Below, in pieces: positions 5,186 through 60,532 of a DNA stretch of 64,000 nt. Under the pieces are notes generated by a model. It was not told where the DNA came from. It ran no database searches and saw only the letters and a list, made by a program, of their open reading frames with translations. This DNA is from Burkholderiales bacterium (GTDB lineage: Bacteria; Pseudomonadota; Gammaproteobacteria; Burkholderiales; Casimicrobiaceae): assembly GCA_025354165.1 (NCBI GenBank), contig JANXNI010000016.1, positions 62,001-126,000 on the forward strand. The letters run 5' to 3'. Positions within the stretch are counted from its first letter, which is position 1. Each line of letters opens with the position of its first letter. Both the position numbers and the translations under genes were made by a program.

Positions 5186-5301
5186 CAGCTTTTCGCTGAA
5201 ACGCCTATTTTACTTGGGCTAAAGTGAATATACGCACCTTATCGACTTTATATATTATCGAGCCTTAGCCCATGTTCAGTAGTCGTTTCACGCGAAAGCT
5301 G
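5186..5301. repeat. 116-bp palindromic intergenic element, copy 1
   Basis: The left end CAGCTTTTCGCTGAAACG pairs with the right end CGTTTCACGCGAAAGCTG, an 18-bp terminal inverted repeat with two differences. An inner inverted repeat, GGGCTAA at 5216-5222 and TTAGCCC at 5265-5271, encloses an AT-rich centre with TCGACTTTATA. The element sits between the divergent starts of alaS and the MFS gene, so it fills most of this 364-bp intergenic region. It is one of seven related copies in the window. Confidence 0.85.
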
Positions 5302-5364
5302 ATCGGCTCACACAACTGAGACAACTGCGCCAAAAGCTCGAACCAACGCGAGATAATCGAGCAC

Positions 5365-6612
5365 TTGAAACGTTTGCCCCCCGCTCAGCTCGTCACCGAC
5401 GAGCAATCTGTACCGTCAGACCCGCAAGACCTGCCGCAGCTTCAGCCGGCCGCCCCAGCGTCGGCGCGCTTGCCGCGCGAGCTCTATGTGCTCGTGCTGC
5501 TCTTGATCCTTGCGCACACTGCCTTCAACGGTATCCGCATCACCACGTCGCTGGCAGCCATTAAGGCGGGCGGCGGCGCGTTGTGGGTGGGTTTGCTCAC
5601 GGCCATGTTCAACATCGTTCCGGCATTTGTCGCGATCCGTGTTGGCCGCATGATCGACCGTGTTCCGCTGCGGCGTCCGCTCGTGCTCGGCTGCGTGATC
5701 GTGGCCATTGGCGGCACCGTGGCTGCGATTGAGCCGATGCTGGGCATCCTCGCGCTGTGCGCCAGCGCGATTGGCCTTGGCTGGATGGCCATTGCCGCGT
5801 CGTCGCAATACGCGGTCGGCTTATACGGCGGTGGCGTCAATCGCGTCCGTGCATTCAGCGTGATGTCGATGGGTTTCTCGATTTCAAGTTTTCTGGGGCC
5901 GCTAATTGCGGGCCTGATGATTGATCATGTGAGCTACCAGGCCGCGTTTGGCGTGTTGGCGGTGCTGCCGGTGATTTCTGCGATCGCGCTGTCCACCCGC
6001 TTACTAAAGCTACCGACCGCGCCGCCGCGCTCCAACACCGAGAATGGCGGCGCGCGTGAACTGTTCGCGATGCCTACGTTGCGAAACACGCTGATCACCG
6101 CAGCGTTCATCACCGTGGGCTGGGACTTGTACGCCTTTATGGTGCCAGTGCTTGGCAGTCACCTCGGGCTTTCGGCAACGCAGATTGGCTCGGTGCTCTC
6201 GCTCTTTGCCATTGCGGTGTTCGTCGTTCGCTTTTTCATGACGACGTTGACCCGGCGACTCGGCGAAACCGGCGTGATGATCGCCGCCATGACACTCGCG
6301 GGTTTCACGTTTCTCGCGTTCTCTTTTGCCAACAGTTATTCGCTGATGCTGACGCTCTCGTTTGTCATCGGCTTGGGCCTCGGCGCGAGCCAGCCGATCA
6401 TCCTGTCGCTCTTGCACGATGCCTCGCCGCCCGGGCGCATCGGCGAAGTCAACGGCATGCGCATGACGCTGATTTCAACCAGCCAATGGACGATGCCGCT
6501 GGTGTTCGGAATGCTCTCGGCGAGCACCGGCATGCTGCCGCTGTTTTTGATCGTCGGCGGCGGAATTTTGTCAGGCAGCGTTTTCGCGCGGCGAAAGTTG
6601 CCACGCGGCTAA
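5365..6612 (+). CDS. Major facilitator superfamily transporter
   Basis: This 415-residue inner-membrane protein has about 12 hydrophobic helices beginning near residue 40, after a hydrophilic proline-rich leader. The MFS signature between helices 2 and 3 reads as RVGRMIDRVPLRRPL, and the second half begins after LLKLPTAPPRSNTENGG. The substrate cannot be read from sequence; the general shape is that of a drug/metabolite exporter. The start used is a TTG at 5365; a later internal start is possible because the leader is not conserved-looking. The gene is divergent from alaS across a 116-bp element. Confidence 0.85.
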   Translation: MKRLPPAQLVTDEQSVPSDPQDLPQLQPAAPASARLPRELYVLVLLLILAHTAFNGIRITTSLAAIKAGGGALWVGLLTAMFNIVPAFVAIRVGRMIDRVPLRRPLVLGCVIVAIGGTVAAIEPMLGILALCASAIGLGWMAIAASSQYAVGLYGGGVNRVRAFSVMSMGFSISSFLGPLIAGLMIDHVSYQAAFGVLAVLPVISAIALSTRLLKLPTAPPRSNTENGGARELFAMPTLRNTLITAAFITVGWDLYAFMVPVLGSHLGLSATQIGSVLSLFAIAVFVVRFFMTTLTRRLGETGVMIAAMTLAGFTFLAFSFANSYSLMLTLSFVIGLGLGASQPIILSLLHDASPPGRIGEVNGMRMTLISTSQWTMPLVFGMLSASTGMLPLFLIVGGGILSGSVFARRKLPRG

Positions 6613-6662
6613 CGACGAAGGATACTTGCCGCCTTCCACGACTTCGATGATCGAAGGGGCGC

Positions 6663-7451
6663 ATGGGCGAGCCAACAGGTGCCAGAGTTTCGAAAGCTGA
6701 AAAAGCGACGAAAAAACTAGCCGGACAGGCAGCCGTGCAGGCGACTCAACGCAGCGCCTTCCTCTGGCGTGATCGCCCGCCGCTTCCGGTGGCGTCGCTG
6801 GCGCTGACGACGCCGCAGCGGTTGTCGCGTCTGATGGATTCATTGTTCCGGAACAGCGTGCCGATCTATGGTTTGCTGTTTTTGCATTACGATGCGCAGC
6901 GCATGATGTTGCTGTATTTTGTCGACACCTGGATCAGCTTGATCATGGTCGCTGCGCTCGATGCCAGGCTCACGCAGCGCAGCGCCAACGCCGGGGCGGG
7001 CAATGGCCGCAGCCTGATCGCGAATTACGTGGATGCGGTCGTCTCCGCTATTTTGGTGATCTCGGTGCTGATGATTCCAGTGGCGGCTCCAGCGCTGTTC
7101 ATGTCGTTCTCGGAAGGCAAATCCCTGCTCGCGACAGACAGCACGCTATGGCCGCTGGTCGGGGCAAACGCGGCGGCGGCAGCCATCAGCTTTCTGCTGC
7201 AATCATTCACCATGCCCAACAATTCGGCCACGGAGGCGCAGTTCAAACATCGCTTTCAACTGACTTTTTTTCGCTGGCTCGCAGTCGTCGTGATGTTCTA
7301 TGTTTTGTTGCAATTTATTGGTTTCAGCACGATTTCGATTTATTTGATGGTGATCGTTTACAGCGGATTCTCGGTATTTGGTGATTGTTTTCCGGAGCAG
7401 ATTGAAAGGATCCCCGAATTCCTGAAGAACATGAATAAGCGGCCTCCGTAG
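6663..7451 (+). CDS. Uncharacterised multipass membrane protein
   Basis: The product has 262 residues. A basic, soluble N-terminus (to about residue 58) is followed by RLMDSLFRNSVPIYGLLFLHYD and then some five or six hydrophobic segments near residues 62-72, 78-96, 122-148, 158-175, 200-218 and 222-240. No signal peptide, catalytic motif or named domain was recognised. It lies 50 bp downstream of the MFS gene on the same strand and may be co-transcribed, but nothing links the two functionally. Confidence 0.7.
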   Translation: MGEPTGARVSKAEKATKKLAGQAAVQATQRSAFLWRDRPPLPVASLALTTPQRLSRLMDSLFRNSVPIYGLLFLHYDAQRMMLLYFVDTWISLIMVAALDARLTQRSANAGAGNGRSLIANYVDAVVSAILVISVLMIPVAAPALFMSFSEGKSLLATDSTLWPLVGANAAAAAISFLLQSFTMPNNSATEAQFKHRFQLTFFRWLAVVVMFYVLLQFIGFSTISIYLMVIVYSGFSVFGDCFPEQIERIPEFLKNMNKRPP

Positions 7452-7535
7452 CGTAGCGCGTGCTTTCGCTGCCGCAGATTGACAACTGTATTTGCATACA
7501 CTATTCTGTCATCACAATAAAAAACGAGGCTGTCA

Positions 7536-10089: not shown

Positions 10090-10450
10090 GGTGGCTTCTC
10101 TTGCGGCTAACGGGCCCAGGCATTGCGAACAACGTAAATGAGGATGCGAACGCAGCAAGCTTAGCGACAAATGCGCCGGTTTGCGCGCAAGCGGCGTGGC
10201 AAGCGACGGCGCGCGGCGTCAAGGGACAAGGCAACGAGATGTGCGACGAGCCGGCAATCCACACTACTTGCCTCTGCACCAGAAAGCGCCGAGAAGCTGA
10301 CGTAACCCTGTAGGAGCTACCGGGCTACACGACGCTATTGGTTTTACCTTCGCCCTTGAAGGAGCGGCTTGCCGCGACCACGGTGGCAACCTTAGCACAG
10401 GGTCGCGGCAAGCCGCTCCTGCACGGGCAACGGCGGACGGATTTTTTTCA
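10090..10450. other. Intergenic region with a REP-like hairpin
   Basis: This stretch lies between the zinc-ribbon gene and recX. Apart from the hairpin at 10361-10419, no gene or RNA was recognised. A small plus-strand frame at 10101-10313 has no supporting features. Confidence 0.5.
10361..10419. repeat. REP-like perfect hairpin, GGAGCGGCTTGCCGCGACC family
   Basis: The left arm GGAGCGGCTTGCCGCGACC (10361-10379) and the right arm GGTCGCGGCAAGCCGCTCC (10401-10419) are perfect reverse complements of 19 bp around a 21-bp loop. The same sequence recurs at 43199-43257. It lies downstream of recX and close to its stop, where it could stabilise or end the transcript. Confidence 0.85.
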
Positions 10451-14118: not shown

Positions 14119-14233
14119 CAGCTTTTCTCTGCAATCACCTTTTATCAAGGGATAAACGCTGATTAGTGTAATACTCGACTTATAGTTATTTACGGCGCTA
14201 CCCCATAAGCAGCGGTCATTTCAGCGCAAAGCC
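14119..14233. repeat. 116-bp palindromic intergenic element, copy 2
   Basis: It starts CAGCTTTTCTCTGCAATCACC and ends near GGTCATTTCAGCGCAAAGCC. The inner parts are AAGGGATAA and GCTACCCC, with CTCGACTTATAG at the centre. The right end is degraded (AAAGCC instead of AAAGCTG). It lies between the convergent ends of lexA and the HAD gene. Confidence 0.7.
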
Positions 14234-14284
14234 ATTAACGTTCGTTTATACGTTCAGCCCTGCACTCCATATAGTTGGCACGCG

Positions 14285-16742: not shown

Positions 16743-17261
16743 TTAGGTCCGCGGCGGGTATACGCCCTGCAAGGCAATACAAAAGTTCAGTGTCAGGTAC
16801 GGCTGCATATTGTTGTGGGGCTGATCGCCACCTATTGCAGCGACGGCGTTGGGCGACATTTGCACCAGGCCTGTGTTACTCGCCTGATAAAGGTTTGCTC
16901 CGACCGAGCGAGCCAATGACTCAGCAACTGCCTGAGGATCTTCCCCTGGCTGGTTCGAAGCCATCATGGTGTGCGAGTGCAAAGGTATTTCAGATTCCAG
17001 CAGCGTCACCGTTTCACTCCCGCCCGCCTCACCCAAATCATGAAGCGAAAGGCCGGGCCCCTGACCTGGGTGCATTGGTGCGTTGCCCTGCATGTCGGGG
17101 AGTGCGAAATTCGACTTGCCGTCGCCCCCGTAAGTCGTACCCAACAGGGAAAAGAGCGCAGTGTTCTGGGAAAGCGGGAGAATCTGCCCATTGCAGAAAG
17201 CCCAGCCTTTGGGGGCAAAATTAAAGGGGAAGATGCGAATCTCGGCAACAAACGGGTCCAT
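16743..17261 (-). CDS. Tail-collar (Mdp-like) domain protein, paralogue 3
   Basis: This 172-residue protein has the phage tail collar domain at its N-terminus: VAEIRIFPFNFAPKGWAFCNGQ, LFSLLGTTYGGDGKSNFALPDMQG. The C-terminus has the shared QPHNNMQPYLTLNFCIALQGVYPP ending. The same family includes the microcystin-dependent proteins of cyanobacteria; function outside phage is not established. There is no signal peptide. It is the last of three tandem paralogues with 9-bp gaps, so co-translation is likely. No phage structural genes are near. Confidence 0.88.
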   Translation of the reverse strand: MDPFVAEIRIFPFNFAPKGWAFCNGQILPLSQNTALFSLLGTTYGGDGKSNFALPDMQGNAPMHPGQGPGLSLHDLGEAGGSETVTLLESEIPLHSHTMMASNQPGEDPQAVAESLARSVGANLYQASNTGLVQMSPNAVAAIGGDQPHNNMQPYLTLNFCIALQGVYPPRT

Positions 17262-18389: not shown

Positions 18390-21300
18390 TCACGGGGTAA
18401 TTCCGCAGGACCCCGCGCCGACTCCAGTGACGGAAGCCTGACCGACGGCCGCCAGGGGTCCTGATCCGCCGGACACGGAAGGGTTCTGCCCGTTGACGAA
18501 TGCCTGCACGGTCGGATCCGACTGCACACCCGCTGTCAAGCCTTCAAGGTTGAACGCCGACGTCGGATTGGCTCGGCGCAGTTGCAGTCCAAAGAAACCA
18601 GGGCCGCCACCCGAGCTGACATTGCCACTGACTTTCGCGCAAACGGTGCTGTTGTTACGCGCCTGAACCCGTATCGCGTCCAGCGCCGTGCCGCCAGATA
18701 CCACGTTCGCCGTGTTGCCCGTCACCGCAATCTTAAGTTGACCGCCCGCGCCGGTTGAGCCCGACGACTCTCCGAGAATCGGGTAGGCATTGTCGATGGC
18801 GCTGATCGTGTTGTTCGCGACGTTAACGTTCATGGTGCCAAACCCGACCACTGACGACCCGGAGTTGAAGGCGCGAATACCGAACTGATTGCCACCGACT
18901 CCCGTCCCCGTAATAACGTTGTTCTTCACTGCGCCCGTTGCAGTTCCGGGCCCACTGCCGCTGAACACATTAATAAGTGTGCTGATCATGCCGCTAACGG
19001 TATTCGAGTCAACATTGAAAGTCAGCGTCGAAGTCACTGCGCGGGAAACCTGAATTCCCTGATTGCCCTGATTAGGGGCGCCAGCGGTAACGGTGTTCCC
19101 CTTGAATGTCGCGTTTAGCGTTGAGCTATCACCTGAGTCAGCGCTCAGAGCGACCGCAGCGTTTCCCGTCAACGTCGAATTTTGGACGGTGCCTGTCAGA
19201 TTGCCACTCAAGCTCGACTGGAAGAATATTCCGTTGTTTCCAGAAGCCGAGCTGTTGTCTTTGATCGTCGCAGCGTCGAACACAATCGTGCCGGTGGTGG
19301 CGCTATTGTGAATGCGGACATTGTCTTCGGTTGATCCACTGACCTCAATGCGGGTCGCGGTTGCAGCCGAATCTGCGAGGTCATTGATCAATATCCCTGC
19401 CTGCTCACCCGTGTTGTTAGTGTTGTTCTGAATCAACAGGTCCGCCATCGCAAGCCGATTGACAGTTGTACCTTTGATGCCGCTGTTGGCGTTATTCTTG
19501 ATCCACATCAGCTTGAGATCAGCCCTCGCATTGGTCAGTGCGATGCCATCGGCCGTTGCTTTCTGAATCGTTCCGCCGCTACAGGTAGTCGTGCCGGTCT
19601 TGCACGTGTTTGTCGTACCGTCGCCGGAAATGGAAAGCGTTCCGCCACCCGTGTTGGTGAGCACGATTCCGTTCGCTGGTCCGGAGCCAGCGGTGCCCGC
19701 CGAGATGCTCTGGTAGTTCAGACCGGACGCGCCAATGGTCGTACCGGAAACGGTGAGTGCCGTTCCAGTAGTTGTAGCAATCGTGTTGCCAGCACCCTGC
19801 ACGGTCACCGTGCCGCCGCCACTGGCCTTGAATCCCAGACCACTCGTGGTCGCGATGGTAAGGCCGCCACCGATGAAGTCAGCGCTGGCGTTGATGAAGT
19901 TCACCGCGTCCGAAGCTCCGGTTGACATACTGATGCCGGTTACCGTGATGCCCGTTGCGGCGCTAACGGCCGAGAGCGTACCCGCGAGCGTGGGGCGGTT
20001 CGCGAGGCTGCCCGGCATGGAAAGCGCGCCTACCGTGAGGGTCGATGCAGCGCCGGTCAGCGTCTGTCCGCCTTTGAACGTGTAGGCACCGATGGTACTG
20101 GCCGTCCCCTTGTAAACGTAGATGTTTGCGTTGGCAGCGGGTCCCGCGCCAGAAAGCGCAGTGCCAAGTCCGTTTGCGCCCGCCCCCATATTCAGGAACG
20201 GAGTGTTCGAGCGGCCATCATGCGTTGTGGCTGCTGAGGCGTTATCCACGTACCAGACGATGTTCGGGATGTTGAACGTGATCGTCGCCGTACGAGAGAC
20301 GCCGTTTGACGTGCCGGTGTAGACATAGGTATCTGTGCCGGACGACTGTCCTGCTGGTGGCGTGTAGGTAAACGCACCCGCGCTGTCGATGGTGATCAAT
20401 CCGCCGCCAGTAGTTGCAACGCCGCTTACCGTGGTCAAAGTGATAGCCACATTCGAGGTGTCATTGCTGAGGATGGTGGTCGCATTGGCGGTGAACGGTG
20501 TCACCGGTGCCGAATGACCGGCAACTACGAACTGCGTGTTGCCAACAACGTTGTAGCTGTCGTTCTGGAGGTTCGGCCCCACCGTGAAAGTCTGTTGAAC
20601 CTGCAGCGCCGGATACCAGGTGGCATCACCCGCCTGATTTGCATCAATCACGCAGGTCCCTGTCCCGATAAACGAAACTAAAGCCCCGGCAATCGAGCAC
20701 ACGCCCGTGGCAGATGCGTCAACCGTTAACGACACCACTAAACCCGACGAAGCAGTTGCCGTCACGGTGTAGGAGCCGTTGTATACGGCCACCGTCGGCG
20801 CAATTGAGGTAAAGACGACGGTCTGGGTTTTGCGTACAGCGAACGACTGCTGTACCTGCGGCGCTGCGAAGTAGCTGGCATTGCCCGCCTGATTTGCGTT
20901 GATCACGCAGGTGCCTGCGTTGGGACCAAATGAAACCGTTGAGCCGACGATAGAGCACACCGACGACGCCGATGGATCGATGGTAAAGCTGACCGCCAAC
21001 CCTGAACTTGCAGTTGCAGTTACAGTGTAAGCCGCCCCGCCGACCGCCGCCGTAGTCGGCGCGCTTGACGTAAAGCTGATCGTCTGGTTGCTCTTTACCG
21101 CGAACGACTGCTGGACCTGCGGAGCCGCGTTGTAGTTGGCATCGCCCGCCTGGTTGGCGTTGATTGTGCAAGTACCGGCACTGATATACGTAACGGTTGT
21201 GCCAGATACCGAGCAAACCGCCGGACTACCGCTCGTGAACGCCACGACAAGCGCTGAAGTCGCCGTTGCAGACACCGTGTAGTCCGGCCCGCCGACCGTC

Positions 21301-24300
21301 GCCGTAGTTGGCGCCGTCGAGGTAAAGCTAATGGTCTGACTACCTTTGGAGACGGCGAGCGACAGTATCTGCTGAGGGGCCGCGTTGTAGTTGGCATTGC
21401 CTGCCTGGTTGGCAAAGATGACGCAGGTGCCAACGCCGATAAACGACACTGTCGTGCCTGAGATCGAGCAAACCGACGCTGCCGGGGGGGCGATTGTGAA
21501 GCTCACCGCCAACCCTGAACTTGCGGTCGCAGCTACCGTGTAGGTAGCGCCACCAACGGTGCCGACGCTGTTCGTTGAAGTGAAGGTGATGGTCTGATCA
21601 CCTTTAGCGACCGCAAAGGACTGCTGCGCCTGCGGAGCGGCGTTGAATGAAGCGTTGCCCGCCTGGTTGGCATTGATCACGCAGGTTCCAGCGCCAATAA
21701 ATGACACTGTGGCGCCAGCGATTGAACAGACCGACGTTGCCGTTGCGTCAATGGCGAAGCTGACCGCCAGACCCGACGACGCTATCGCGGTGACCGTATA
21801 AGTTGCACCGTTAAAGCTGGCCGTGGTTGGCGCTGGCGAAGTGAAGTTGATCGTCTGGCCACCCTTGTTCACGGCGAACGATTGCTGCGCTTGTGTGGCG
21901 GCGTTGTAATTGGCATTACCCGCCTGGTTGGCGTTGATCACGCAGGTGCCGTTACCGATGAAGGACACCGCTGCGCCGGAGATCGAACAGACTGCCGCAG
22001 CCGATGCGTCGATCGTGAAGGTCACCGCCAATGCGGATGATGCCGTGGCCGTTACTGTGTAAGTCGCTCCGCCAACTGTGGCTGTAGCCGGCACAGTAGA
22101 CGTGAAACTGATTGTTTGGCTACCTTTGCCTACTGCGAACGACTGCTGCGCCTGGGGGGCCGCGTTGTAATTCGCATTGCCCGCCTGATTGGCGTTGATC
22201 ACGCAGGTGCCAGCGCTGGTAAACGACACTGTCGAACCAGAAATCGAGCATACCGCCGTCGCTGAGGCGTCGATCGTGAAAGTAGGCGTCAGACCGGACG
22301 TTGCGGTCGCGGTCACCGAGTAGGTCGCACCGCCAACGGCCGCCGGCGCGGGGGCCGCCGAAGTGAAGCTGACGGTCTGGCTGCCTTTGGCTACGGCAAA
22401 TGTTTGCTGTACCTGGGGCGCTGCGTTGTAGTTGGCATTACCCGCCTGGTTCGCATTAATTACGCAGGTGCCAACCGAGAGAAACGACACTGTTGCCCCC
22501 GATATTGAGCAGACCGCAGTAGCGGACGGGTCGATAGAGAACGTCGGCGCAAGACCTGACGTCACGCTCGCCGTCACTGTGTAGGCAGGACCACCGACAG
22601 CGGCTGTCGTGGGTGCGCTTGACGTAAAGCCAGTCGTCTGATCACCTTTGGCGACCGCGAACAACTGCTGCACTTGCGTTGCCGCGCTGTAGGTTGCATT
22701 GCCCGCCTGGTTGGCGTCGATCACGCAGGTGCCAGCGCCAATAAATGTCACTGTCGCGCCGGAGATCGAGCACACCGCACTCGCCGTCGCGTCAATGGTG
22801 AACCCAACGGCAAGTCCCGAGGTTGCAGTCGCCGTCACCGTGTACGTCGCACCGGCTACTTTGGCGGCCGCTGGCGCGGTCGACGTGAACGCAATCGTTT
22901 GATCGCCCTTGGCGACGGCAAACGATTGCTGCACTTGTGGCGCAGCGTTGTAATTCACATTGCCCGCCTGGTTGGCGTTAATTACGCAGGTGCCGACCGT
23001 GGTGAACGACACCGTCGAACCAGAGATTGAGCACACGGCCGTCGCAGTAGCATCAATCGTGAATGCAGGTGCCAGACCCGATGTTGCCGTCGCGGTCACC
23101 GTGTAAGTTGCGCCAGCTACCTTGGCCGCAGTCGGCGCGGTCGAAGTGAAATTGATGGTCTGATCACCCTTGGCCACTACAAACGATTGCTGAACCTGAG
23201 GCGCGGCGTTGTAATTGACGCCACCCGCCTGATTGGCGTTGACTACGCAAGTTCCAGCGGTCAGGAACGATACCGTCACACCCGAGATTGAACACACTGC
23301 GGCGGCAGAAACATCAATGGTGAATGTCACTGGCAAAGCCGATGGCGAAGCTGTCGCCGCGACCGTGTACGTTGGGCCTCCTACCTTGGCCGTGGCGGGT
23401 GCGGTTGAGGTAAACACGATTGTCTGATCACCTTTAGCTACTGCAAACGATTGCTGCAGCTGGGGAGCCGCGTTGTAGTTGGTGTTACCAGCCTGATTTG
23501 CGTTGATCACACAGGTGCCAACCGTCAGTAACGACACCGTTGCGCCAGAAATCGAACAGACCGCAGAGGCAGATGCATCAACGGTGAAAGCCGGTGTCAG
23601 GCCAGACGTGGCGGTCGCGGTCACGGTATAGGTTGGCCCCGCTACCTTGGCAGTGGCAGGCACCGTTGAGGTGAAATTGATTGTCTGATTGCCTTTGACT
23701 ACGGCAAACGATTGCTGAACCTGCGGCGCGGCGTTGTAGTCCGCATTACCTGCCTGGTTGGCGTTGATCACGCAAGTGCCAACCCCGATGAACGATACCG
23801 TCGCACCGCTAATCGAGCAGACGGTAGCGGCCGAGGCGTCAATACTGAAAGCGGGCGCAAGTGTCGACGTTGCCGTAGCGGCCACCGCATAGGTTGCGCC
23901 ACCCACAGACGCTCCCGCTGGGGCAGCCGACGAGTAGCTGATCGTCTGGCTGGCTTTCGATATCGTCAGCGTAAACGGCTGTGCCGCCGGTGCTCCGACG
24001 CCATTGCCCGGCGTGAAAGTCAATGCGTAGGGGTTAACCGTGCCGAGTGCAGGCGTGCCTGACAGCGTGCCGGTTCCATTGCCGTTATCAACATAGGTCA
24101 TACCCGTCGGCAACGCGACACCACCACGCGCAATGGCAGGCACCGGGAAACCGCTCGCCGTAACCGTGAAGCTGCACGCTGCGCCCACGACGCAGGTTGT
24201 GCTGTTGGCGCTGGTGATCGCAGGTGTTTGATTAACTGTGAGCGTAAAGTTCTGAACGGTATTGGGCGGAATACCATTGGCAGCCGTTAGTGTGATCGGA

Positions 24301-25958
24301 TAAACGCCGCCGGTGCCCGCCGCTGGCGTGCCGGCAAACGTTCCGTTCAGCGGTGTGCCGGGCCCGTTGTAGGTAAACGTCACGCCAGTCGGAAGCGTCC
24401 CGGTCTGCGTAATTCCGGTCGTCGCTGGCGTCGCGGTGGTTGTGACCGTGAAACTGCCCGCCGTGCCAGCAATAAACGTTGTCGCGTTAGCGCTCGTAAA
24501 CGTAGGCGGCAAGCCAAGGTTCAATGTGAAAGCCTGTGTGGCGTTACTGCCGAAGCCATTGCTTGCGGTCAGAGTACAGCTATATGTACCGCCCTGCGCG
24601 ACGGTCGGGTTGCCTGCAAGCGTGGCAGTGTTGTTACCGTTGTTGGTTACGGCAACAGACGGCGGCAACGCAACGTTACACGCACTGAGGGCAAACGTTG
24701 CGCTCGGAACACCGGTTGCAGTGAAATTGAAACTATTGGCTTGTCCGGGAATGAACGTGGCGTTATTGACGCTGGTGATGGTTGGCGGCAGCTTCACATC
24801 AATGGTCACCGTTGCATCGGCCGAATTGAGTACGCCGTCGTTAGTACGGAACGTGAAGCTGTCTGGCCCGCCGTAGGTGCTGTTGGCCGTGTAGGTGAGG
24901 TTAGGTGCCGTTCCCGTCAACGCGCCGTGCGCAGGCGGCGCGACGACAGTAAATGTTAGCGGCGAGGCCTCATAGTCAGAGCCGGTGAGCGTGATCGGCA
25001 GCGCCACATTGGCGACTGCGACGACACTCTGCGCATTTGCAACCGGCGGCGCATTGAGCACCATGTCAATGCGGAAATAGACGTTGTCCCGGTCAACTGT
25101 GCTGAAAAGAGTCGTGATGTCGGTGCCCGCTGGCGCGTCGCCCGTCGGATCGGTTGCGACGGGCGCGATGCCAGTCCAGTCACCGACAAAGCCGTCGCGC
25201 ACGATAGCGGCGATCAATTGCCCCGACATCGAAATCGCGAAGGCGGCGACGATGACAAGCTGCATGCCATGCCAGCCGCGGCGGCGCGCAAACCAGACCG
25301 ACAACGCCAACAATAGCGCGGTCAGCGCGAGTGACAGTTTGGCCAGCGTGGGAACCACCATCAAGGGCGGGCCGTCGACGAGGATCGGCCCCGCACCGCT
25401 GAGCGTTAAGGCGTCAGCACCCGTCAAGCCGTCGGAGCCTAGCGTGGTGATACCGATCCGCATTTTTTGGCCATTGGCGGGCAAAAATGCGTTTGGCAGA
25501 TAAGTTTCAACCGCTGTCGTACCGCTGCTGCCATTGCCTCGCGCCAGAGGTGTCGACGAAGCATCGACGAGCGTGGCGGGGCCGAGCGTTCCGCCCGAAC
25601 ATGCTTGCTGCGTAATGGACGAAATACGATAGCCAGTGGCGTCGGCCACGACAATGGTGTTGAGAACCTTGTCCACACCCGCAAATGCGCCGTTGGCTGT
25701 GCTGATTGAGCACCCGGAAGCAGCGTTGTTGTCGGCATCGATTAGCGTACTGACGGTGGTGGTCGCAGCGAACGTGACCGAGGCAGCTAAGGCGGCGATT
25801 GAGACTGAAGCGGCCCGCAACAGAGAACACCAGCGCGGAGCAAGTGGTTGACGGATTCGGCTCACAGTAGCCAACTCACTTTGCGCACCGCGCGCCTTTT
25901 GAATGGCTCCGCTGACGCCGCCAATTCCGCTGAATTCCATGCAATCCCCCGTTTTCAT
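18390..25958 (-). CDS. Giant repeat-rich surface protein with Ig-like repeats and beta-helix
   Basis: The product has 2,522 residues. Residues 45-65 form a signal-like segment after a long leader; the ATG at residue 7, with GGGGGA before it, may be the true start. Residues 201-227 resemble an IPTL-CTERM sorting tail (VPTL, hydrophobic helix, RRR), but lie internally and are followed by a second hydrophobic stretch (233-251). Then come a cadherin-like Big_9-type domain (about 310-390), putative Ig domains (390-665), thirteen repeats of about 86 residues (668-1793), a further Ig-like domain, and a right-handed beta-helix-like region rich in NNT and GN turns to the end. It is probably exported and cell-surface bound; an adhesin role is inference. 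Confidence 0.8.
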   Translation of the reverse strand: MKTGDCMEFSGIGGVSGAIQKARGAQSELATVSRIRQPLAPRWCSLLRAASVSIAALAASVTFAATTTVSTLIDADNNAASGCSISTANGAFAGVDKVLNTIVVADATGYRISSITQQACSGGTLGPATLVDASSTPLARGNGSSGTTAVETYLPNAFLPANGQKMRIGITTLGSDGLTGADALTLSGAGPILVDGPPLMVVPTLAKLSLALTALLLALSVWFARRRGWHGMQLVIVAAFAISMSGQLIAAIVRDGFVGDWTGIAPVATDPTGDAPAGTDITTLFSTVDRDNVYFRIDMVLNAPPVANAQSVVAVANVALPITLTGSDYEASPLTFTVVAPPAHGALTGTAPNLTYTANSTYGGPDSFTFRTNDGVLNSADATVTIDVKLPPTITSVNNATFIPGQANSFNFTATGVPSATFALSACNVALPPSVAVTNNGNNTATLAGNPTVAQGGTYSCTLTASNGFGSNATQAFTLNLGLPPTFTSANATTFIAGTAGSFTVTTTATPATTGITQTGTLPTGVTFTYNGPGTPLNGTFAGTPAAGTGGVYPITLTAANGIPPNTVQNFTLTVNQTPAITSANSTTCVVGAACSFTVTASGFPVPAIARGGVALPTGMTYVDNGNGTGTLSGTPALGTVNPYALTFTPGNGVGAPAAQPFTLTISKASQTISYSSAAPAGASVGGATYAVAATATSTLAPAFSIDASAATVCSISGATVSFIGVGTCVINANQAGNADYNAAPQVQQSFAVVKGNQTINFTSTVPATAKVAGPTYTVTATATSGLTPAFTVDASASAVCSISGATVSLLTVGTCVINANQAGNTNYNAAPQLQQSFAVAKGDQTIVFTSTAPATAKVGGPTYTVAATASPSALPVTFTIDVSAAAVCSISGVTVSFLTAGTCVVNANQAGGVNYNAAPQVQQSFVVAKGDQTINFTSTAPTAAKVAGATYTVTATATSGLAPAFTIDATATAVCSISGSTVSFTTVGTCVINANQAGNVNYNAAPQVQQSFAVAKGDQTIAFTSTAPAAAKVAGATYTVTATATSGLAVGFTIDATASAVCSISGATVTFIGAGTCVIDANQAGNATYSAATQVQQLFAVAKGDQTTGFTSSAPTTAAVGGPAYTVTASVTSGLAPTFSIDPSATAVCSISGATVSFLSVGTCVINANQAGNANYNAAPQVQQTFAVAKGSQTVSFTSAAPAPAAVGGATYSVTATATSGLTPTFTIDASATAVCSISGSTVSFTSAGTCVINANQAGNANYNAAPQAQQSFAVGKGSQTISFTSTVPATATVGGATYTVTATASSALAVTFTIDASAAAVCSISGAAVSFIGNGTCVINANQAGNANYNAATQAQQSFAVNKGGQTINFTSPAPTTASFNGATYTVTAIASSGLAVSFAIDATATSVCSIAGATVSFIGAGTCVINANQAGNASFNAAPQAQQSFAVAKGDQTITFTSTNSVGTVGGATYTVAATASSGLAVSFTIAPPAASVCSISGTTVSFIGVGTCVIFANQAGNANYNAAPQQILSLAVSKGSQTISFTSTAPTTATVGGPDYTVSATATSALVVAFTSGSPAVCSVSGTTVTYISAGTCTINANQAGDANYNAAPQVQQSFAVKSNQTISFTSSAPTTAAVGGAAYTVTATASSGLAVSFTIDPSASSVCSIVGSTVSFGPNAGTCVINANQAGNASYFAAPQVQQSFAVRKTQTVVFTSIAPTVAVYNGSYTVTATASSGLVVSLTVDASATGVCSIAGALVSFIGTGTCVIDANQAGDATWYPALQVQQTFTVGPNLQNDSYNVVGNTQFVVAGHSAPVTPFTANATTILSNDTSNVAITLTTVSGVATTGGGLITIDSAGAFTYTPPAGQSSGTDTYVYTGTSNGVSRTATITFNIPNIVWYVDNASAATTHDGRSNTPFLNMGAGANGLGTALSGAGPAANANIYVYKGTASTIGAYTFKGGQTLTGAASTLTVGALSMPGSLANRPTLAGTLSAVSAATGITVTGISMSTGASDAVNFINASADFIGGGLTIATTSGLGFKASGGGTVTVQGAGNTIATTTGTALTVSGTTIGASGLNYQSISAGTAGSGPANGIVLTNTGGGTLSISGDGTTNTCKTGTTTCSGGTIQKATADGIALTNARADLKLMWIKNNANSGIKGTTVNRLAMADLLIQNNTNNTGEQAGILINDLADSAATATRIEVSGSTEDNVRIHNSATTGTIVFDAATIKDNSSASGNNGIFFQSSLSGNLTGTVQNSTLTGNAAVALSADSGDSSTLNATFKGNTVTAGAPNQGNQGIQVSRAVTSTLTFNVDSNTVSGMISTLINVFSGSGPGTATGAVKNNVITGTGVGGNQFGIRAFNSGSSVVGFGTMNVNVANNTISAIDNAYPILGESSGSTGAGGQLKIAVTGNTANVVSGGTALDAIRVQARNNSTVCAKVSGNVSSGGGPGFFGLQLRRANPTSAFNLEGLTAGVQSDPTVQAFVNGQNPSVSGGSGPLAAVGQASVTGVGAGSCGITP
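20580..23957 (-). repeat. Thirteen tandem in-frame repeats of about 258 bp
   Basis: Each unit begins KGDQTI-FTS and contains VCSISG-TVSF, a GTCVINANQAGN segment and a closing YNAAPQVQQSFAV. Every unit has two conserved cysteines, in CSI and GTC, probably forming a disulfide. Units are similar but not identical. Unit lengths of about 85-88 codons stay in frame, and the two outermost at the C-terminal side are the most diverged. The array is coding and not a CRISPR. Confidence 0.9.
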
Positions 25959-29726: not shown

Positions 29727-29765
29727 TCCCCTCTCCCCTTGCGGGAGAGGGGTAGGGTGAGGGGT
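29727..29765. repeat. REP-like element, CTCTCCC/GGGAGAG family (left end of unit)
   Basis: CCCTCTCCCCTTGCGGGAGAGGGG is followed by TAGGGTGAGGGG. It is oriented opposite to the copy at 31216-31250 and together with it bounds the DUF4145 unit. Confidence 0.8.
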
Positions 29766-29790
29766 TTGGTGGAATGAGCGGATTCGTCAA

Positions 29791-29993
29791 CCACCAGCGC
29801 GCTCATGCCGCGCGGGGCAGTAACTTTCTTTTGCGTCGCCAAAAGAAAGTCACCAAAGAAAAGGCGACCCCGACATTCGCCCTGATCCGAGATTTGAAAC
29901 GAAAACGTCGCGCGGTCCGAAACTCGCTACGCTCAAACAACGGACCGCTTCATCGACGTTTTCACTCCAAATCTCGGGGGCGAATGAACGGGG
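29791..29993. repeat. Left 203-bp inverted-repeat arm
   Basis: It starts CCACCAGCGCGCTCATGCCG and ends CGAATGAACGGGG. Inside are a hairpin ACTTTCTTTTG/CAAAAGAAAGT with a six-base loop, and a long palindrome from CATTCGCC to GGCGAATG enclosing GCGGTCCG/CGGACCGC. The arm can be translated as a short Arg-rich frame in many copies, but that frame looks incidental. Confidence 0.88.
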
Positions 29994-30066
29994 GCCCGGC
30001 GACCCAATTTGCCATCGCGAAACCCGGTTGTGAGGCACGCGGAATCACAAGGCAGGCGCAAAGACG

Positions 30067-30792: not shown

Positions 30793-30988
30793 AACGTATC
30801 TAGAGATTGCGGCGTGGGCGAAATATAGACGGTAACACGGCCACAACCTTAAGCAGAGGTGAGTCTCGTCAAAGAACTAATCGCGCACATGACGAAAATC
30901 GTTGTCGATGTAGCAGGCGTAGCCCGGATGCTTGCATCCGGGTTCCCGTCACCCGATCGCGTAGCGTCAAGTATTCGTTCGACGGGGT

Positions 30989-31191
30989 CCCCGTTCATTC
31001 GCCCCCGAGATTTGGAGTGAAAACGTCGATGAAGCGGTCCGTTGTTTGAGCGCAGCGAGTTTCGGACCGCGCGACGTTTTCGCTTCAAATCTCGGATTAG
31101 GGCGAATGTCGGGGTCGCCTCTTCTTTGGTGACTTTCTTCTGGCGACGCAGAAGAAAGTTACTGCCCCGCGCGGCATGAGCGCGCTGGTGG
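30989..31191. repeat. Right 203-bp inverted-repeat arm
   Basis: This is the reverse complement of 29791-29993 with six differences. Two of these are a matched T/A to C/G change in the same hairpin stem (ACTTTCTTCTG/CAGAAGAAAGT), so the stem is kept. The frame at 30849-31208 lies over this arm and is not considered a gene. Confidence 0.88.
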
Positions 31192-31215
31192 CATACGCAC
31201 CATCTCATTCCACGA

Positions 31216-31250
31216 GCCCCCTCACCCTCTCCCGCAAGGGGCGAGGGGAC
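31216..31250. repeat. REP-like element, CTCTCCC/GGGAGAG family (right end of unit)
   Basis: The sequence is CCCCCTCACC followed by CTCTCCCGCAAGGGGCGAGGGG, the reverse orientation of the copy at 29727. It lies 27 bp from the stop of the substrate-binding protein gene. Confidence 0.8.
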
Positions 31251-33948: not shown

Positions 33949-34321
33949 CCCTACAGCTTTTTTGTTTAACCTTTTCTGCATGCGGTCTGGCCGGGCATTT
34001 TGGCCTTAGTTGATATCTTTATTAATATCAATCTAGCCCCAATGCAAGCTTGGTTTCATGAGAAAGCTGATTGGTGTTTCTCCCGTCTGCGCCGGCGGAA
34101 TCGCCTGTAGCAAAAAGACACATGCGAACTCCCCGCGCAGCGCCGGGTTCGAGAATTGCATCAACGCGCAGCCATGTGAACATCCGGATGACTTAGACTG
34201 CATCCACGACTGCATCTGCGTACGTTTGTAGATGCAGCCGACGGAGACCCTGCACGCATCCAGCGACGTAGTTAGTTTTTCAGTCGGATGTCTGTAGCGG
34301 CCTCTACTAAAAGGAGGCAAC
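33949..34321. other. Intergenic region with a 116-bp element
   Basis: It contains copy 3 of the 116-bp element, then about 250 bp with no recognised gene. A 95-codon minus-strand frame at 34033-34320 has no supporting features. AAGGAGG just before 34322 is the ribosome-binding site of the next gene. Confidence 0.5.
33954..34069. repeat. 116-bp palindromic intergenic element, copy 3
   Basis: It starts CAGCTTTTTTGTTTAACC and ends GGTTTCATGAGAAAGCTG. The centre has TTGATATC-TTTATTAA-GATATCAA-like symmetry, and CTAGCCCC forms the right inner arm. The left inner arm is altered. It lies five bases after the MIOX stop codon. Confidence 0.82.
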
Positions 34322-39601: not shown

Positions 39602-39717
39602 CAGCTTTTCGTTGAATTTGCCATTCTATTGGGGCTAGCAGTGATTTATTCGTTAAGTCGACTTACCAGCTTTTTTGCTTCTAGCCCTCGTGCAGCGGTG
39701 CTTTTGTTAAAAAGTCA
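39602..39717. repeat. 116-bp palindromic intergenic element, copy 4
   Basis: It starts CAGCTTTTCGTTGAATTTGCC. The inner arms GGGGCTAG (39631-39638) and CTAGCCC (39681-39687) match. At the centre is the perfect palindrome TAAGTCGACTTA (39654-39665). The right end, near TTTTGTTAAAAAGTC, is degraded. It lies between the convergent ends of the CBS gene and mtfA, reaching almost to the mtfA stop. Confidence 0.78.
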
Positions 39718-40554: not shown

Positions 40555-40592
40555 CCCCCTCTCCCCTTGCGGGAGAGGGTTGGGGTGAGGGG
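40555..40592. repeat. REP-like element, CTCTCCC/GGGAGAG family, first of a pair
   Basis: CCCCCTCTCCCCTTGCGGGAGAGGG is followed by TTGGGGTGAGGGG. With the inverted copy at 40634-40674 it forms a two-element array in the rmuC-mtfA gap. Confidence 0.8.
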
Positions 40593-43067: not shown

Positions 43068-43198
43068 AAAGCGTAGTCTAGCGAGTCGAACCTATAATTC
43101 ATCGCAATCGGCTTTCACACAAAAGCGGGGTTGTCATCGAACTTAAGCGTTTGCCGACACTCCGTTTTTTTACGTCTGCGATTTGGTGATATTTGCTC

Positions 43199-43257
43199 TT
43201 GTAGGAGCGGCTTGCCGCGACCGCTGGACTTGAGGTCGCGGCGAGCCGCTCCTACAA
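43199..43257. repeat. REP-like hairpin, GGAGCGGCTTGCCGCGACC family, second copy
   Basis: The left arm TTGTAGGAGCGGCTTGCCGC continues into GACC (to 43222); the right arm is 43234-43257. The 24-bp arms have one mismatch. It lies in the gap between DUF2891 and guaC, 36 bp before the guaC start. Confidence 0.85.
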
Positions 43258-43293
43258 GGCCAACGCAGAACACGACAGACTGAGGTATTAATC

Positions 43294-47704: not shown

Positions 47705-47820
47705 CAGCTTTTCGCTGTAATCGCCTCTGCATTGGGGGTATAACCCGTATTTATCAGAAGTCGATTTCTGAATAAATGCGCTTCTAGCGCTTGTAAAAAC
47801 GTCATTTCGGCGTAAAGCCG
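47705..47820. repeat. 116-bp palindromic intergenic element, copy 5
   Basis: It starts CAGCTTTTCGCTGTAATCGCC and ends CGTCATTTCGGCGTAAAGCCG. The inner stem ATTTATCAGAA-GTCGA-TTTCTGAATAAAT is very strong, and GGGGGTATA stands at the usual left inner position. It lies between the binding protein and the downstream serine hydrolase, tandem orientation. Confidence 0.78.
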
Positions 47821-50983: not shown

Positions 50984-51099
50984 CAGCTTTTGTGTGAAAC
51001 AGCCATTAGATATGGGATTGAAGCTCATTATTGAGATTATCGGTTTATGAACTTTTATCGATGTAGCCCCTACGCAATGGTGTTTTCACGAAAAAGCTG
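50984..51099. repeat. 116-bp palindromic intergenic element, copy 6
   Basis: It starts CAGCTTTTGTGTGAAACA and ends TGTTTTCACGAAAAAGCTG. The terminal repeat is nearly perfect; GTAGCCCC is the right inner arm and ATGGGATTG the left counterpart. It lies between the divergent hydrolase and gntR starts. Confidence 0.85.
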
Positions 51100-54922: not shown

Positions 54923-55043
54923 GAACAACTCGCTGTAACAACCCTGGCAACGCCGACATCCCGCAACCAACGGGTCGAATTTAGTCCGAGGACTCGATCA
55001 CAGATTTGAGCGGCTCAACAACCTGACGGCTTGCCAGGCGGGT

Positions 55044-58157: not shown

Positions 58158-58859
58158 ATGAATCTTTTATCCGAAACTCTGCGCGAGGCTATTGAAGAGG
58201 AAGTGACCACCGGCAAACTCTCGCCCGGCACCCATCTGGACGAAATTGAGTTGGCCAAACGCTTTGGCGTGTCGCGAACCCCCATTCGCGAAGCCTTGAG
58301 CCTGCTGGCGGGCGAAGGACTCGTAGAAATGCGACCTCGCCGTGGCGCTGTGGTCGCGCAAATCACCCCCGGGCGGCTCATCGAAATGTTTGAAGTGATG
58401 GCTGAATTGGAGGCCATGTGTGTGCGGCTTGCGGCACGACGCATCTCGCAGACCGAGCTCCAGGCGCTGGAAAGCGCCCATGACAGCTGCCGTGCAGCCG
58501 CAGCCGGTCGTGACCCTAACGCCTATTTCTATGCTAACGAGCACTTTCACCAGGCCATCTATGCGGCAGGCCACAACAGCTATCTGAGCGACCAGGCGCA
58601 CGCGCTACAGCGCAGACTGCGGCCTTATCGCCGCCTGCAACTACGGGTGCGCAACCGCATGCAGCACTCGCTTGACGAACATCAAGTCATTTTCGAAGCG
58701 CTGCGCGACGGCGACGCTGAGCTGGCGGTACGCGCCATTCGGGCCCATGTAGTAGTGCAAGGCGAGCGCTTTGCCGATTTGCTCGCCGGGCTGGCGGATC
58801 TGGACGCCAAAACAGCGGCAGCCGACGCGCGCACGTCACGCAATCTGGTCGCGGTGTGA
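58158..58859 (+). CDS. GntR-family (FCD type) regulator, TRAP-linked
   Basis: The 233-residue protein has the winged helix LSETLREAIEEEVTTGKLSPGTHLDEIELAKRFGVSRTPIREALSLLAGEGLVEMRPRRGA and an FCD domain (NAYFYANEHFHQAIYAAGHNSYL, DEHQVIFEALRDGDAELAVRAIRAHV). It is divergent from dctP with 158 bp between starts, so it most likely controls the TRAP genes, apart from the MatR-like regulator of matA-matB. The effector is unknown. Confidence 0.92.
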   Translation: MNLLSETLREAIEEEVTTGKLSPGTHLDEIELAKRFGVSRTPIREALSLLAGEGLVEMRPRRGAVVAQITPGRLIEMFEVMAELEAMCVRLAARRISQTELQALESAHDSCRAAAAGRDPNAYFYANEHFHQAIYAAGHNSYLSDQAHALQRRLRPYRRLQLRVRNRMQHSLDEHQVIFEALRDGDAELAVRAIRAHVVVQGERFADLLAGLADLDAKTAAADARTSRNLVAV

Positions 58860-59076
58860 GCCGAGGCGGACAACGCACGGCCCTGGCCGTTGCTTTAAAG
58901 AACCTGCGCCCCGATAAATTCATGGGCCGGCGCGATTGTTCTTTAGAGTTTTGTAGATGCGACCAATGAGTTCATAGCGCGCGGGTCAATGGCCCCCCGC
59001 TGTTTTCGGTACGGGCCATCTGGGCACGACGTTGTGACGTTTGAAGCTGTCTCCCTCGTGCGGCGCGATCAGTACG

Positions 59077-59349
59077 TTAGGCGCTCTGCGGCACCATGGC
59101 AAACATGCGCCGCATCATCGCCTCCAGCGCCAGTCGCCGTTTCAGTGGACTTTCGTATTCCCACCAATAGGGCACCAGGATCGCCCCAGCGCCGCCCAGG
59201 CGGCGGCGCAGCTCGATGCCGCTGCGCCGGGTGCGCGTTTGCGTGCGCGCGTACCACGCCGACAGCAGGCGCTCGCGTGCTTTGAGCCATTGCTGGGTAC
59301 GGCGCAGTAACGAGACTGAACCAGTGGAAAGGCGATCACGCCGCCGCAT
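59077..59349 (-). CDS. Small Arg-rich hypothetical protein overlapping the bactofilin end
   Basis: A 90-residue frame starts at an ATG inside the last codons of the bactofilin gene (overlap 14 bases), typical of coupled translation. The sequence is basic (RRTQQWLKARERLL, YARTQTRTRRSGIELRRRLGG) with a hydrophobic patch LVPYWWEYESP and ends LEAMMRRMFAMVPQSA. No family recognised. It could be a chance frame; the overlap and same-strand position favour a real gene. A longer version to 59547 would run through the bactofilin. Confidence 0.4.
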   Translation of the reverse strand: MRRRDRLSTGSVSLLRRTQQWLKARERLLSAWYARTQTRTRRSGIELRRRLGGAGAILVPYWWEYESPLKRRLALEAMMRRMFAMVPQSA

Positions 59350-60004
59350 GATGATCGATGCCGTTCGGCACAGGTTTGCCCAGCACGGCTGCTGAACCCG
59401 CAATCCGCGCAGACGGGTAACCGGCAAACAGCGCGCTCTGTGCCTCGCCTTTACCGTCGATAGAGGCGATGTCGCCACTGACAACCCCGCCTTCAGACAC
59501 CAGCAACGAGCCATAGCGAACGACGCCGGACACCCATCCCGACGCATGCACGATGAGTTTTTTTCGGGCGGTCAGATTGCCGGAAAACTTGCCGTGAATC
59601 TCGGCGACATCGATGGTCACAGTGCCTTCGTACGAACCCGTCTTGAGAATTTCCAGCGTCTTGCTGTCCATAGATGCCTCAACATGGCCCTCGACCACCA
59701 GAGTGTCGCAATCATTGATTTCTGCTCCTTTGAGTTTGATGTTAGGGCCGACGGTGAGTCGGGGCGCACCGGCGACGTGTGGCTCGGTCGATTCAACGTG
59801 TTGACCGCCGGCAGCGGGGGCTTTTGTTTCGCCGACGGCAGGCGTGCGCGTCGCCGTACTCAGCGGCGGCGTTACCGCGACCGCAGATAGCGGCGCGGCG
59901 TCCGCTTGCGGCGCATAGCGCGGGGTGTCAGGCGTCGCGCGACTGTTGATGACGGGGGCAGTAACGGGTTCGTCACGGCGACCTAGAAATGAATTTTTTA
60001 ACAT
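59336..60004 (-). CDS. Bactofilin
   Basis: This 222-residue protein starts at 60004, where GGGAGATATCG precedes the ATG. The first about 90 residues are a flexible Pro/Ala-rich leader; the core (about 90-190) is the bactofilin beta-helix: LTVGPNIKLKGAEINDCDTLVVEGHVEASMDSKTLEILKTGSYEGTVTIDVAEIHGKFSGNLTARKKLIVHASGWVSG. Bactofilins polymerise into cytoskeletal filaments tied to cell shape and wall synthesis. No peptidase partner is next to it. Confidence 0.93.
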   Translation of the reverse strand: MLKNSFLGRRDEPVTAPVINSRATPDTPRYAPQADAAPLSAVAVTPPLSTATRTPAVGETKAPAAGGQHVESTEPHVAGAPRLTVGPNIKLKGAEINDCDTLVVEGHVEASMDSKTLEILKTGSYEGTVTIDVAEIHGKFSGNLTARKKLIVHASGWVSGVVRYGSLLVSEGGVVSGDIASIDGKGEAQSALFAGYPSARIAGSAAVLGKPVPNGIDHHAAA

Positions 60005-60532
60005 CGATATCTCCCTAAAGCGATGAGTGTCAGCACGGCGGATGCCCTGCTGAAATAAATGCACCAAACCTCGCTCCCCCGAGTGGCCGACTTTGCAACT
60101 ACCCTTGCAAACGTCCGAGCCCAGCACATTGAGCAAGTATGACGTCAGCATGGGTCGTGAGTTCTACTTTGCCATGACATTTCTTTCGTCCGCTGTCTCC
60201 ACAGAACGACCAGATTACGCTCTGAATTGTCAAACCATTGATTTGTTTGGATTTTTGTTGTCGCGAGAGGCAGACAGAAACGGATAATTTTTTCATCAGC
60301 TTTTTTATGCAATGACGTTTTTACGGGGGATTATTCGCATTTTCATAGAAAGTCGACTAATACTCATATTTCGATGTAGCCCAATATCACACGTCATTTC
60401 AACAAAAAGCTGAACCCTCAGCCGTGGCTCGTGCGATTCGTCGCGCCTGAACGCGTATCGTCGCCCGCCGCTCAACAATCAGGCGGAACCGCCGTAGCAT
60501 CAAGCGTCATTGCAATCGATATCTGGCACGCT
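60005..60532. other. Intergenic region with a 116-bp element
   Basis: Between the divergent bactofilin and serine-hydrolase genes there are 528 bp. They hold copy 7 of the 116-bp element; the rest shows no recognised gene. The plus-strand frame opening at 60431 is the unsupported upstream extension of the hydrolase, and small frames near 60100-60290 lack coding character. Confidence 0.5.
60297..60412. repeat. 116-bp palindromic intergenic element, copy 7
   Basis: It starts CAGCTTTTTTATGCAATGACG and ends CGTCATTTCAACAAAAAGCTG, a 21-bp terminal repeat. The inner parts are GGGGGATTA and GTAGCCC, with AAAGTCGACTAATA at the centre. It lies between the divergent bactofilin and serine-hydrolase starts. 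Confidence 0.83.

What the first reader, a model, noticed from the sequence alone, without database searches (positions are those of the whole stretch)
5186..60412. Seven copies of a ~116-bp palindromic intergenic element of unrecognised family
Copies at 5186, 14119, 33954, 39602, 47705, 50984 and 60297 all start CAGCTTTT and end near TTTCA...AAAGCTG, with nearly constant length (about 114-116 bp). They share an inner GGGGCTA/TAGCCCC inverted repeat and an AGTCGACTTA-like centre. Primary sequence between these parts is diverged, but spacing and symmetry are kept, which suggests selection for structure or recent spread of a non-autonomous element. All lie between genes, in divergent (3), convergent (2) and tandem (2) settings, so a pure terminator role does not fit. 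Density is about one per 9 kb.
Basis: seen in the sequence. Interest (0 to 1): 0.78.

Follow-up and report, generated by a model that had tools for sequence, protein, structure and literature searches.

The report
Evenly spaced paired DNA sites genome-wide
One genus of Burkholderiales bacteria carries up to several hundred copies per genome of a 116-118 base-pair mirror-image DNA site that sit between genes, keep their distance from one another and differ together from species to species, as if a still unknown protein held the chromosome at regular points.

Summary
The seven copies are real. A model trained on 29 copies from elsewhere in the genome ranks exactly these seven first in the window (73.6-100.3; next -42.2). 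The genome has 319 pattern matches (reversed control 0). Of 16 other genomes of the same Burkholderiales genus, 11 have 10 or more matches; outside the genus only single, chance-level matches were seen.

No sign of a folded structure: arms covary neither with each other nor inside, apart from marginal signals in G011 and G013 and a probable register shift in G014. No sign of recent spread: no near-identical copies, no target duplication. Boxes are conserved while spacers are nearly saturated. Many sites are shared between species, yet 20 of 21 shared copies fit their own species' consensus better. Copies repel each other: 9 of 143 neighbour distances are under 3 kb, about 31-34 expected.

Best reading: a two-armed double-stranded protein site with a dedicated, co-evolving binder and a spaced, architectural or insulating role. 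Binder and function are inferred. Main rival: an old transposon-derived repeat with target immunity.

The parts
5186..5301. copy 1, 116 bp, divergent gap between alaS (-) and an MFS gene (+); an element also lies upstream of alaS in G001, G005, G008, G012, G013, G014 (6 of 15 other genus genomes read by eye)
14119..14234 (.). copy 2, 116 bp, convergent gap behind a lexA-type gene; no element in the corresponding gaps of G013 and G014
33954..34069 (.). copy 3, 116 bp, lowest-scoring of the seven, tandem gap behind a MIOX gene; none seen in the corresponding gap of G001 (139 bp against 291)
39602..39717 (.). copy 4, 116 bp, convergent gap (35 and 6 bp to the two stop codons); an element also follows the CBS-domain gene in G001, G005, G006, G012, G013, G014 (next gene 1.1-3.1 kb further on in G013 and G005)
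47705..47820 (.). copy 5, 116 bp, tandem gap; also in G005 and G006; not seen in G001, G004, G012, G013
50984..51099 (.). copy 6, 116 bp, divergent gap before a GntR-type gene; also in G001, G005, G006, G012, G013
60297..60412 (.). copy 7, 116 bp, divergent gap; matches all 20 pattern positions; also in G005

Best explanation
Each copy is a double-stranded DNA site of two inverted arms of 58 or 59 bp that meet at a TCGA-type centre. Each arm has an outer box (CARCTTTT), an AA box, inner boxes that form a local palindrome in several species (for example GCC..GGC) and an A/T box nearer the centre. A sequence-specific protein or complex, probably oligomeric, binds both arms at once, because strong solitary arms are rare. 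The binder has changed specificity as species split, and the sites have followed. Copies are kept about 10-13 kb apart between genes, preferably behind stop codons and between convergent genes, so the likely role is chromosome architecture or insulation, such as a barrier between supercoil or transcription domains. Shown: anatomy, lack of a folding signal, box constraint, sharing of sites between species, species-wide co-change, spacing. Inferred: the binder, its oligomeric state and the function.
For: Dyad symmetry only at consensus level: arm-arm pairing 30.9 observed against 32.1 expected in 36 copies of G000 and 30.6 against 31.5 in 38 of JANXUB. Largest column-pair z in 69 copies of G000 is 2.4; in arms and centres of G000, G005, G011, G013 no pair exceeds the largest of 20 column shuffles. 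Within-copy arm identity is not above between-copy identity in four of five species.

Constraint: at three gaps occupied in both G000 and G001, box columns agree 47, 38 and 41 of 54, spacers 11, 16 and 7 of 34; unrelated copies of G000 agree 0.73 and 0.30 with slightly different column sets.

Sharing of sites: in conserved gene pairs, both/first only/second only/neither = 7/0/0/40 divergent, 3/5/3/350 tandem, 5/4/2/15 convergent.

Co-change: 20 of 21 distinct copies in the 15 doubly occupied conserved gaps fit their own species' leave-one-out model better than the partner species' model; 27 of 28 with looser pairing by flanking DNA; 162 of 167 copies in all fit their own species best among five. 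Length differs by species too: 116 bp in 36 of 39 of G000, 118 in 42 of 44 of G011 and 22 of 28 of G013, mixed in G005 and G014.

Spacing: 9 of 143 neighbour distances under 3 kb against 30.9-34.5 expected, CV 0.70 against 0.97-0.99; none of 2000 and none of 3x1000 simulations as extreme.

Paired arms: 255 strong arm hits inside elements, 8 outside, 0 in reversed sequence.

Context: 44 of 107 convergent gaps of at least 112 bp are occupied against 100 of 535 others. Flanking genes of the window copies have unrelated functions.
Against: No binder was found and nothing was measured in cells. The A/T pattern gives no clean helical period inside an arm: best periods 7.35-9.55 bp in five species, so wrapping of the DNA is not supported. 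Preference for gene ends and convergent gaps is also what mere tolerance of insertion would give. Distances rest on my element calls and a home-made gene caller. A 116-bp site is unlikely to arise by point mutation, so some copying process must have acted. Occupancy differs between species in 14 of 29 conserved gaps with at least one copy. Weak signals for pairing: G011 within-copy arm identity 0.538 against 0.522, P 0.046; in G013 two nested pairs of the local palindrome, 19-33 and 20-32, pair at 0.75 and 0.62 against 0.57 and 0.49 expected. One of three G000-G001 pairs has spacer agreement above the baseline (16 of 34).
Confidence: 0.5

Rival explanations
1. Transposon-derived repeat: two back-to-back transposon ends, spread long ago by a transposase with multi-box ends; target immunity of the Mu/Tn7/Tn3 sort (recalled) keeps copies apart; the parent is lost.
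For: Hundreds of dispersed intergenic copies; inverted arms; copies repel each other; in 6 of 14 one-sided conserved gaps the empty gap is 11-50 bp where the occupied one is 176-210 bp.
Against: No target duplication of 3-6 bp above chance; no close copies; boxes conserved while spacers are nearly saturated, so decay is not neutral; shared copies match the species consensus; no pair of solitary arms around a gene was seen in 2.05 Mb from five genomes; no exact match in viral contigs, no blastn match of one copy in plasmids or phages.
Confidence: 0.25
2. Strong DNA gyrase sites spread over the chromosome: symmetric about a 4-bp centre, 120 bp wide, near gene ends where positive supercoils gather.
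For: Width and symmetry resemble the 130-bp E. coli gyrase motif, which is symmetric about the cleavage site (PMC6379681, passages); spacing about 12 kb; convergent and 3' preference.
Against: The E. coli motif is degenerate with GC content periodic at 10.75 bp in its flanks; here sequence boxes carry the signal and the best arm periods are 7.35-9.55 bp. Species-wide change of inner boxes is not expected from a conserved enzyme alone (inference).
Confidence: 0.1
3. REPIN-like population driven by a REP-associated tyrosine transposase (RAYT).
For: Symmetric, about 70-110 bp, extragenic, hundreds of copies (PMC3116915 passages); persistence for millions of years (PMC8049555 abstract).
Against: REPINs show common compensatory changes and near-random placement; here neither. 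G000 has one PF01797 match, with a stop inside, and no CAGCTTTT..AAAAGCTG pair in its 3.2-kb locus.
Confidence: 0.04
4. Structured non-coding RNA or bidirectional terminator hairpin.
For: Local palindromes in each arm in several species; proximity to stop codons; marginal pairing signals in G013 and G011.
Against: No pair beyond shuffles in G000, G005, G011, G013; no Rfam match at gathering scores; 31 of 156 placed copies in divergent gaps.
Confidence: 0.04

Closest known systems
REPIN (REP doublets, Pseudomonas and other bacteria)
   Same: symmetric pair of inverted arms, 71 or 110 bp between REPs in P. fluorescens SBW25, extragenic, hundreds of copies
   Different: REPINs have common compensatory changes and near-random placement in extragenic space; here no clear covariation, strong mutual exclusion, different end boxes, and no pair of these ends beside the one RAYT-family match of G000
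ERIC / IRU (RU-1, 127 bp, Enterobacteria)
   Same: similar length, dispersed between genes (abstract); palindromic (recalled)
   Different: described as small mobile, MITE-like sequences (abstract) with similar copies (recalled); here spacers are random and boxes species-specific
E. coli gyrase motif and BIME-2
   Same: about 120-130 bp, symmetric about 4 bp; BIME-2 intergenic and proposed to help organise the genome
   Different: gyrase motif is phased GC content without fixed boxes; here fixed boxes and no clean 10.75-bp phase
matS/MatP, parS/ParB, SlmA and Noc sites (recalled)
   Same: dispersed dyad sites for an architectural protein
   Different: those are short sites confined to parts of the chromosome (recalled); here 116-118 bp, with 7 or more copies on each of the 11 sampled contig stretches

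Membership tests
REPIN | compensatory changes in a hairpin formed by the two arms | tested here: not met
   marginal excess in G011 only
REPIN | near-random distribution of doublets in extragenic space | tested here: not met
   9 of 143 distances under 3 kb against about 31-34 expected
REPIN | RAYT gene flanked by the repeat | tested here: not met
   one PF01797 match in G000 with an internal stop; no CAGCTTTT..AAAAGCTG pair in its 3.2-kb locus; other genomes not tested
MITE | terminal inverted repeats | tested here: met
   CARCTTTT..AAAAGYTG ends
MITE | target site duplication | tested here: not met
   no excess at 3-6 bp in five species; at 2 bp 15 against 12.5, 8 against 5.3, 1 against 2.1, 8 against 5.1 and 3 against 2.7, so a 2-bp duplication is not excluded
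MITE | homogeneous recent copies | tested here: not met
   best pair 81 of 116 among 36 copies of G000 and 78 of 116 among 38 of JANXUB; not all copies of the genomes were compared
MITE | parent transposon with the same ends | tested here: inconclusive
structured RNA | covarying base pairs | tested here: not met
   G014 exceeds its shuffles, which I read as an arm-register shift without a separate test; G013 has a mild excess at 19-33 and 20-32
strong gyrase site | 10.75-bp phased GC content in both flanks | tested here: not met
   best arm periods 7.35-9.55 bp; the published matrix itself was not available
strong gyrase site | cleavage by gyrase at the centre | not testable with these tools
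   needs Topo-Seq
architectural protein site | bound by a dedicated protein in cells | not testable with these tools
   needs pull-down or ChIP
architectural protein site | conserved dyad boxes at shared, non-randomly spaced positions | tested here: met

The most novel reading that the evidence does not exclude
A previously undescribed chromosome-organising system: roughly 400 regularly spaced, two-armed 116-118 bp sites per genome (extrapolated for G000 from 39 in 464 kb), held by a dedicated DNA-binding complex whose specificity drifts between species while all sites follow, one arm at a time.
Probability: 0.35. Interest if true: 0.9.

Novelty: new variant of a known kind. Interest (0 to 1): 0.72.

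Why it matters
Dispersed palindromic repeats are usually read as mobile or neutral. Here several signals point to use by the cell: box constraint with nearly saturated spacers, sharing of sites between species, species-wide co-change at shared sites and a minimum distance between copies. If true, it gives sequence-defined candidates for spaced chromosome domains in bacteria, and a natural experiment on how a binder and hundreds of sites co-evolve: G005 and G014 carry long and short arms in proportions close to independent combination (116/117/118 bp: 2/16/12 observed against 3.3/13.3/13.3 expected; 5/12/8 against 4.8/12.3/7.8).

Tried and rejected
Hairpin or RNA: not supported by the covariation tests. 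The high scores of G014 (z up to 6.4, shuffles at most 2.7) involve mutually incompatible pairs and go with its two arm types of 58 and 59 bp, so I read them as a register shift; this was not tested separately. Single copies with near-perfect arms exist (L159:1329 in G008, perfect 22-bp ends).

Helical wrapping: I first saw A/T peaks about 10 bp apart, but the fit per arm does not support one period near 10.5. Dropped as evidence.

Regulon operator: flanking genes of the seven copies are unrelated.

Loose regular expressions matched everywhere (455 hits in reversed sequence) and were discarded; the tighter set still had 15 hits in reversed sequence, so from it only hits lying in a corresponding gap were used. 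Iterating a model in G002 diverged after the first round (round 0, 38 real against 5 reversed; round 5, 413 against 225); round 0 was seeded from hits in the same stretches, so it is weak evidence. One search printed '22 of 44' through a counting slip with truth values; one search repeats the count (43 of 44 comparisons, 27 of 28 copies). Its pairs come from flanking DNA with gaps up to 3 kb; one, before alaS in G011, lies nearly 3 kb from the gene and is not the same gap. One search repeats the test on the 15 strict pairs (29 of 30 comparisons, 20 of 21 copies). One search stopped with an error after three of eight printouts. One called copy of G005 (130 bp) and three of G013 (112, 128, 128 bp) have unusual lengths and were kept; 2 of the 167 copies fall in called genes and 9 lie at stretch edges. 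The spacing test uses the 154 copies on 11 contiguous stretches; 13 on isolated stretches were left out.
Full report
What was checked. A symmetric model trained on 29 copies from other contigs of the same genome ranks exactly these seven first in the window, 73.6-100.3 against -42.2 for the next position; the best score in 20 simulated windows is -31.1. The window lies in a 4.72-Mb genome in 97 contigs. A 20-base pattern (ends, TCGA centre, fixed spacing) finds 319 places with at most 3 mismatches and none when read backwards. In 464 kb searched with an arm model (the window plus 400 kb of two other contigs) there are 39 copies, 0 in reversed sequence, 36 of them 116 bp long. In the other four species the reversed control gave 1, 2, 0 and 0 hits against 31, 28, 25 and 44 copies.

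Who has it. With the 116-bp and the 118-bp pattern (each at most 2 mismatches), 14 of 16 other genomes of the genus have at least one hit and 11 have 10 or more in one of the two searches. G002 has none by pattern; models of other species suggest a divergent form there (6, 9, 3, 0 and 7 hits with five models against 0, 1, 12, 0 and 0 reversed; round 0: 38 against 5 in 200 kb, self-seeded). G009 has 5 by pattern and one clear copy in about 191 kb sampled. G016 has none by pattern. In 47 genomes of other genera of the family an ends-only 118-bp pattern gives one single hit, in a genome that also has a control hit. Among 24 genomes of other families of the order, single hits occur in G050 and G056, near the chance level. 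A form too divergent for these patterns outside the genus is not excluded. A scan of the named species genomes with the exact pattern returned 43 stretches, 35 from one record set (JANXUB) and 8 from five others, titled Burkholderiales, Betaproteobacteria or Proteobacteria MAGs; records near the window's own genome may be left out there. The genus name was not determined.

Anatomy. Half consensus by species: G000 CAGCTTTt...TgAAA.c.c..cTg.at.gGGGCTa; G005 CAgCTTTt.....aAA.ccccatt..at..GGGCt; G014 CAaCTTTT...tgAAA.gcgcaTCca.aacGGgcTtg; G013 CAGCTTTTt.g....A.CGAC.g.c...cGgtc.tT; G011 cAgCttTtt...t.aA.GCCatatgAAATAaGGc.T. The centre is TCGA in G000 and G013 and TTTCGAAA-like in G011. Outside the ends, an A/T and then often a T follow in four of five species. 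Arms are 58 or 59 bp. G005 and G014 mix both, with total lengths 116/117/118 of 2/16/12 and 5/12/8, close to free combination. Left and right arm scores correlate at -0.01 to 0.14 in four species and 0.37 in G011. Strong arms rarely occur alone: 8 outside elements against 255 inside at the 25th percentile of arm scores.

Not a fold, as far as tested. If the symmetry served a hairpin, changes in one arm would be matched in the other. Arm pairing is slightly below expectation in G000 and JANXUB. The largest z of any column pair in 69 copies of G000 is 2.4, and in arms and centres of G000, G005, G011 and G013 no pair exceeds the largest of 20 column shuffles. G014 exceeds them, probably because its two arm types are out of register. 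Within-copy arm identity is not above between-copy identity in four species and marginally higher in G011; G013 shows a mild excess at two nested pairs. The symmetry therefore belongs mainly to the consensus, as for a protein that reads double-stranded DNA.

Under constraint and shared. At three gaps occupied in both G000 and G001, spacer columns agree 11, 16 and 7 of 34, mostly at the level of unrelated copies, while box columns agree 47, 38 and 41 of 54. An element follows the CBS-domain gene (39602) in six other species and lies before alaS in six others; nine of 15 others show none before alaS. In conserved gene pairs among five species, occupancy is shared more than by chance (Fisher P 0.028, 1.4e-4 and 1.6e-8 for convergent, tandem and divergent; sites recur in several species pairs, so these are not independent). 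In 14 one-sided gaps, the empty gap is 11-50 bp in six and 167-450 bp in eight.

Changed together. In the 15 doubly occupied conserved gaps, 20 of 21 distinct copies fit their own species' leave-one-out model better than the partner species' model; with looser pairing 27 of 28, and 162 of 167 copies fit their own species best among five. Spacers are not shared between paralogues among the 36 and 38 copies compared, so copying between sites does not explain it. A change of the binder's specificity, followed by the sites, would.

Kept apart. Over 11 stretches in five species, 9 of 143 neighbour distances are under 3 kb and 4 under 2 kb, against about 31-34 and 20-24 under four null models, with CV 0.70 against 0.97-0.99; no simulation was as extreme. 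Copies sit close behind stop codons and further from starts. They occupy 44 of 107 convergent gaps of at least 112 bp against 100 of 535 others.

Meaning. Constraint, sharing of sites, co-change and exclusion point to sites used by the cell, with a dedicated binder. The genes next to the window copies (alaS, lexA type, MIOX, transporter, hydrolase and beta-lactamase-fold genes) share no function, which argues for a structural rather than a regulatory role. A transposon-derived origin is likely in some form, since a 116-bp motif is unlikely to arise by point mutation, and target immunity could also keep copies apart. It does not by itself explain box constraint or change in place.

Literature. 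Seven searches of the library listed no paper whose title or abstract start describes this element; one search returned no paper. This covers only the open-licence library. I saw passages of PMC6379681, PMC12393610 and PMC3116915, and the outlines with abstracts of PMC8049555 and PMC2759123. matS, parS, SlmA and Noc sites and target immunity of Mu, Tn7 and Tn3 are recalled.

Noticed in passing
window 10349-10433 and 43192-43263: Inverted pairs of a GGAGCGGCTTGCCGCGACC repeat, REP-like, separate from this family.
   Followed up: no
window 12008, 29728, 31206, 40556, 40630: A second dispersed repeat (CCCCTCACCCTAACCCTCTCCCGC type); its copy near 40556 also matches many places in relatives.
   Followed up: no
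window 29749-29997 and 30985-31233: A 249-nt inverted repeat, 92% complementary, with 987 nt between the arms.
   Followed up: no
window 18390-25958 (-): A 2522-aa ORF with at least 13 tandem repeats of about 261 nt (87 aa), perhaps a surface adhesin (function inferred).
   Followed up: no
window 16743-17261 (-): ORF with a phage tail collar domain next to similar-sized ORFs.
   Followed up: no
L208:6342 and L210:17697 (G014): Two similar longer repeats that hold one strong arm while no second arm is recognised.
   Followed up: partly
L159:1329 (G008): A copy with perfect 22-bp inverted ends, unlike the rest.
   Followed up: no
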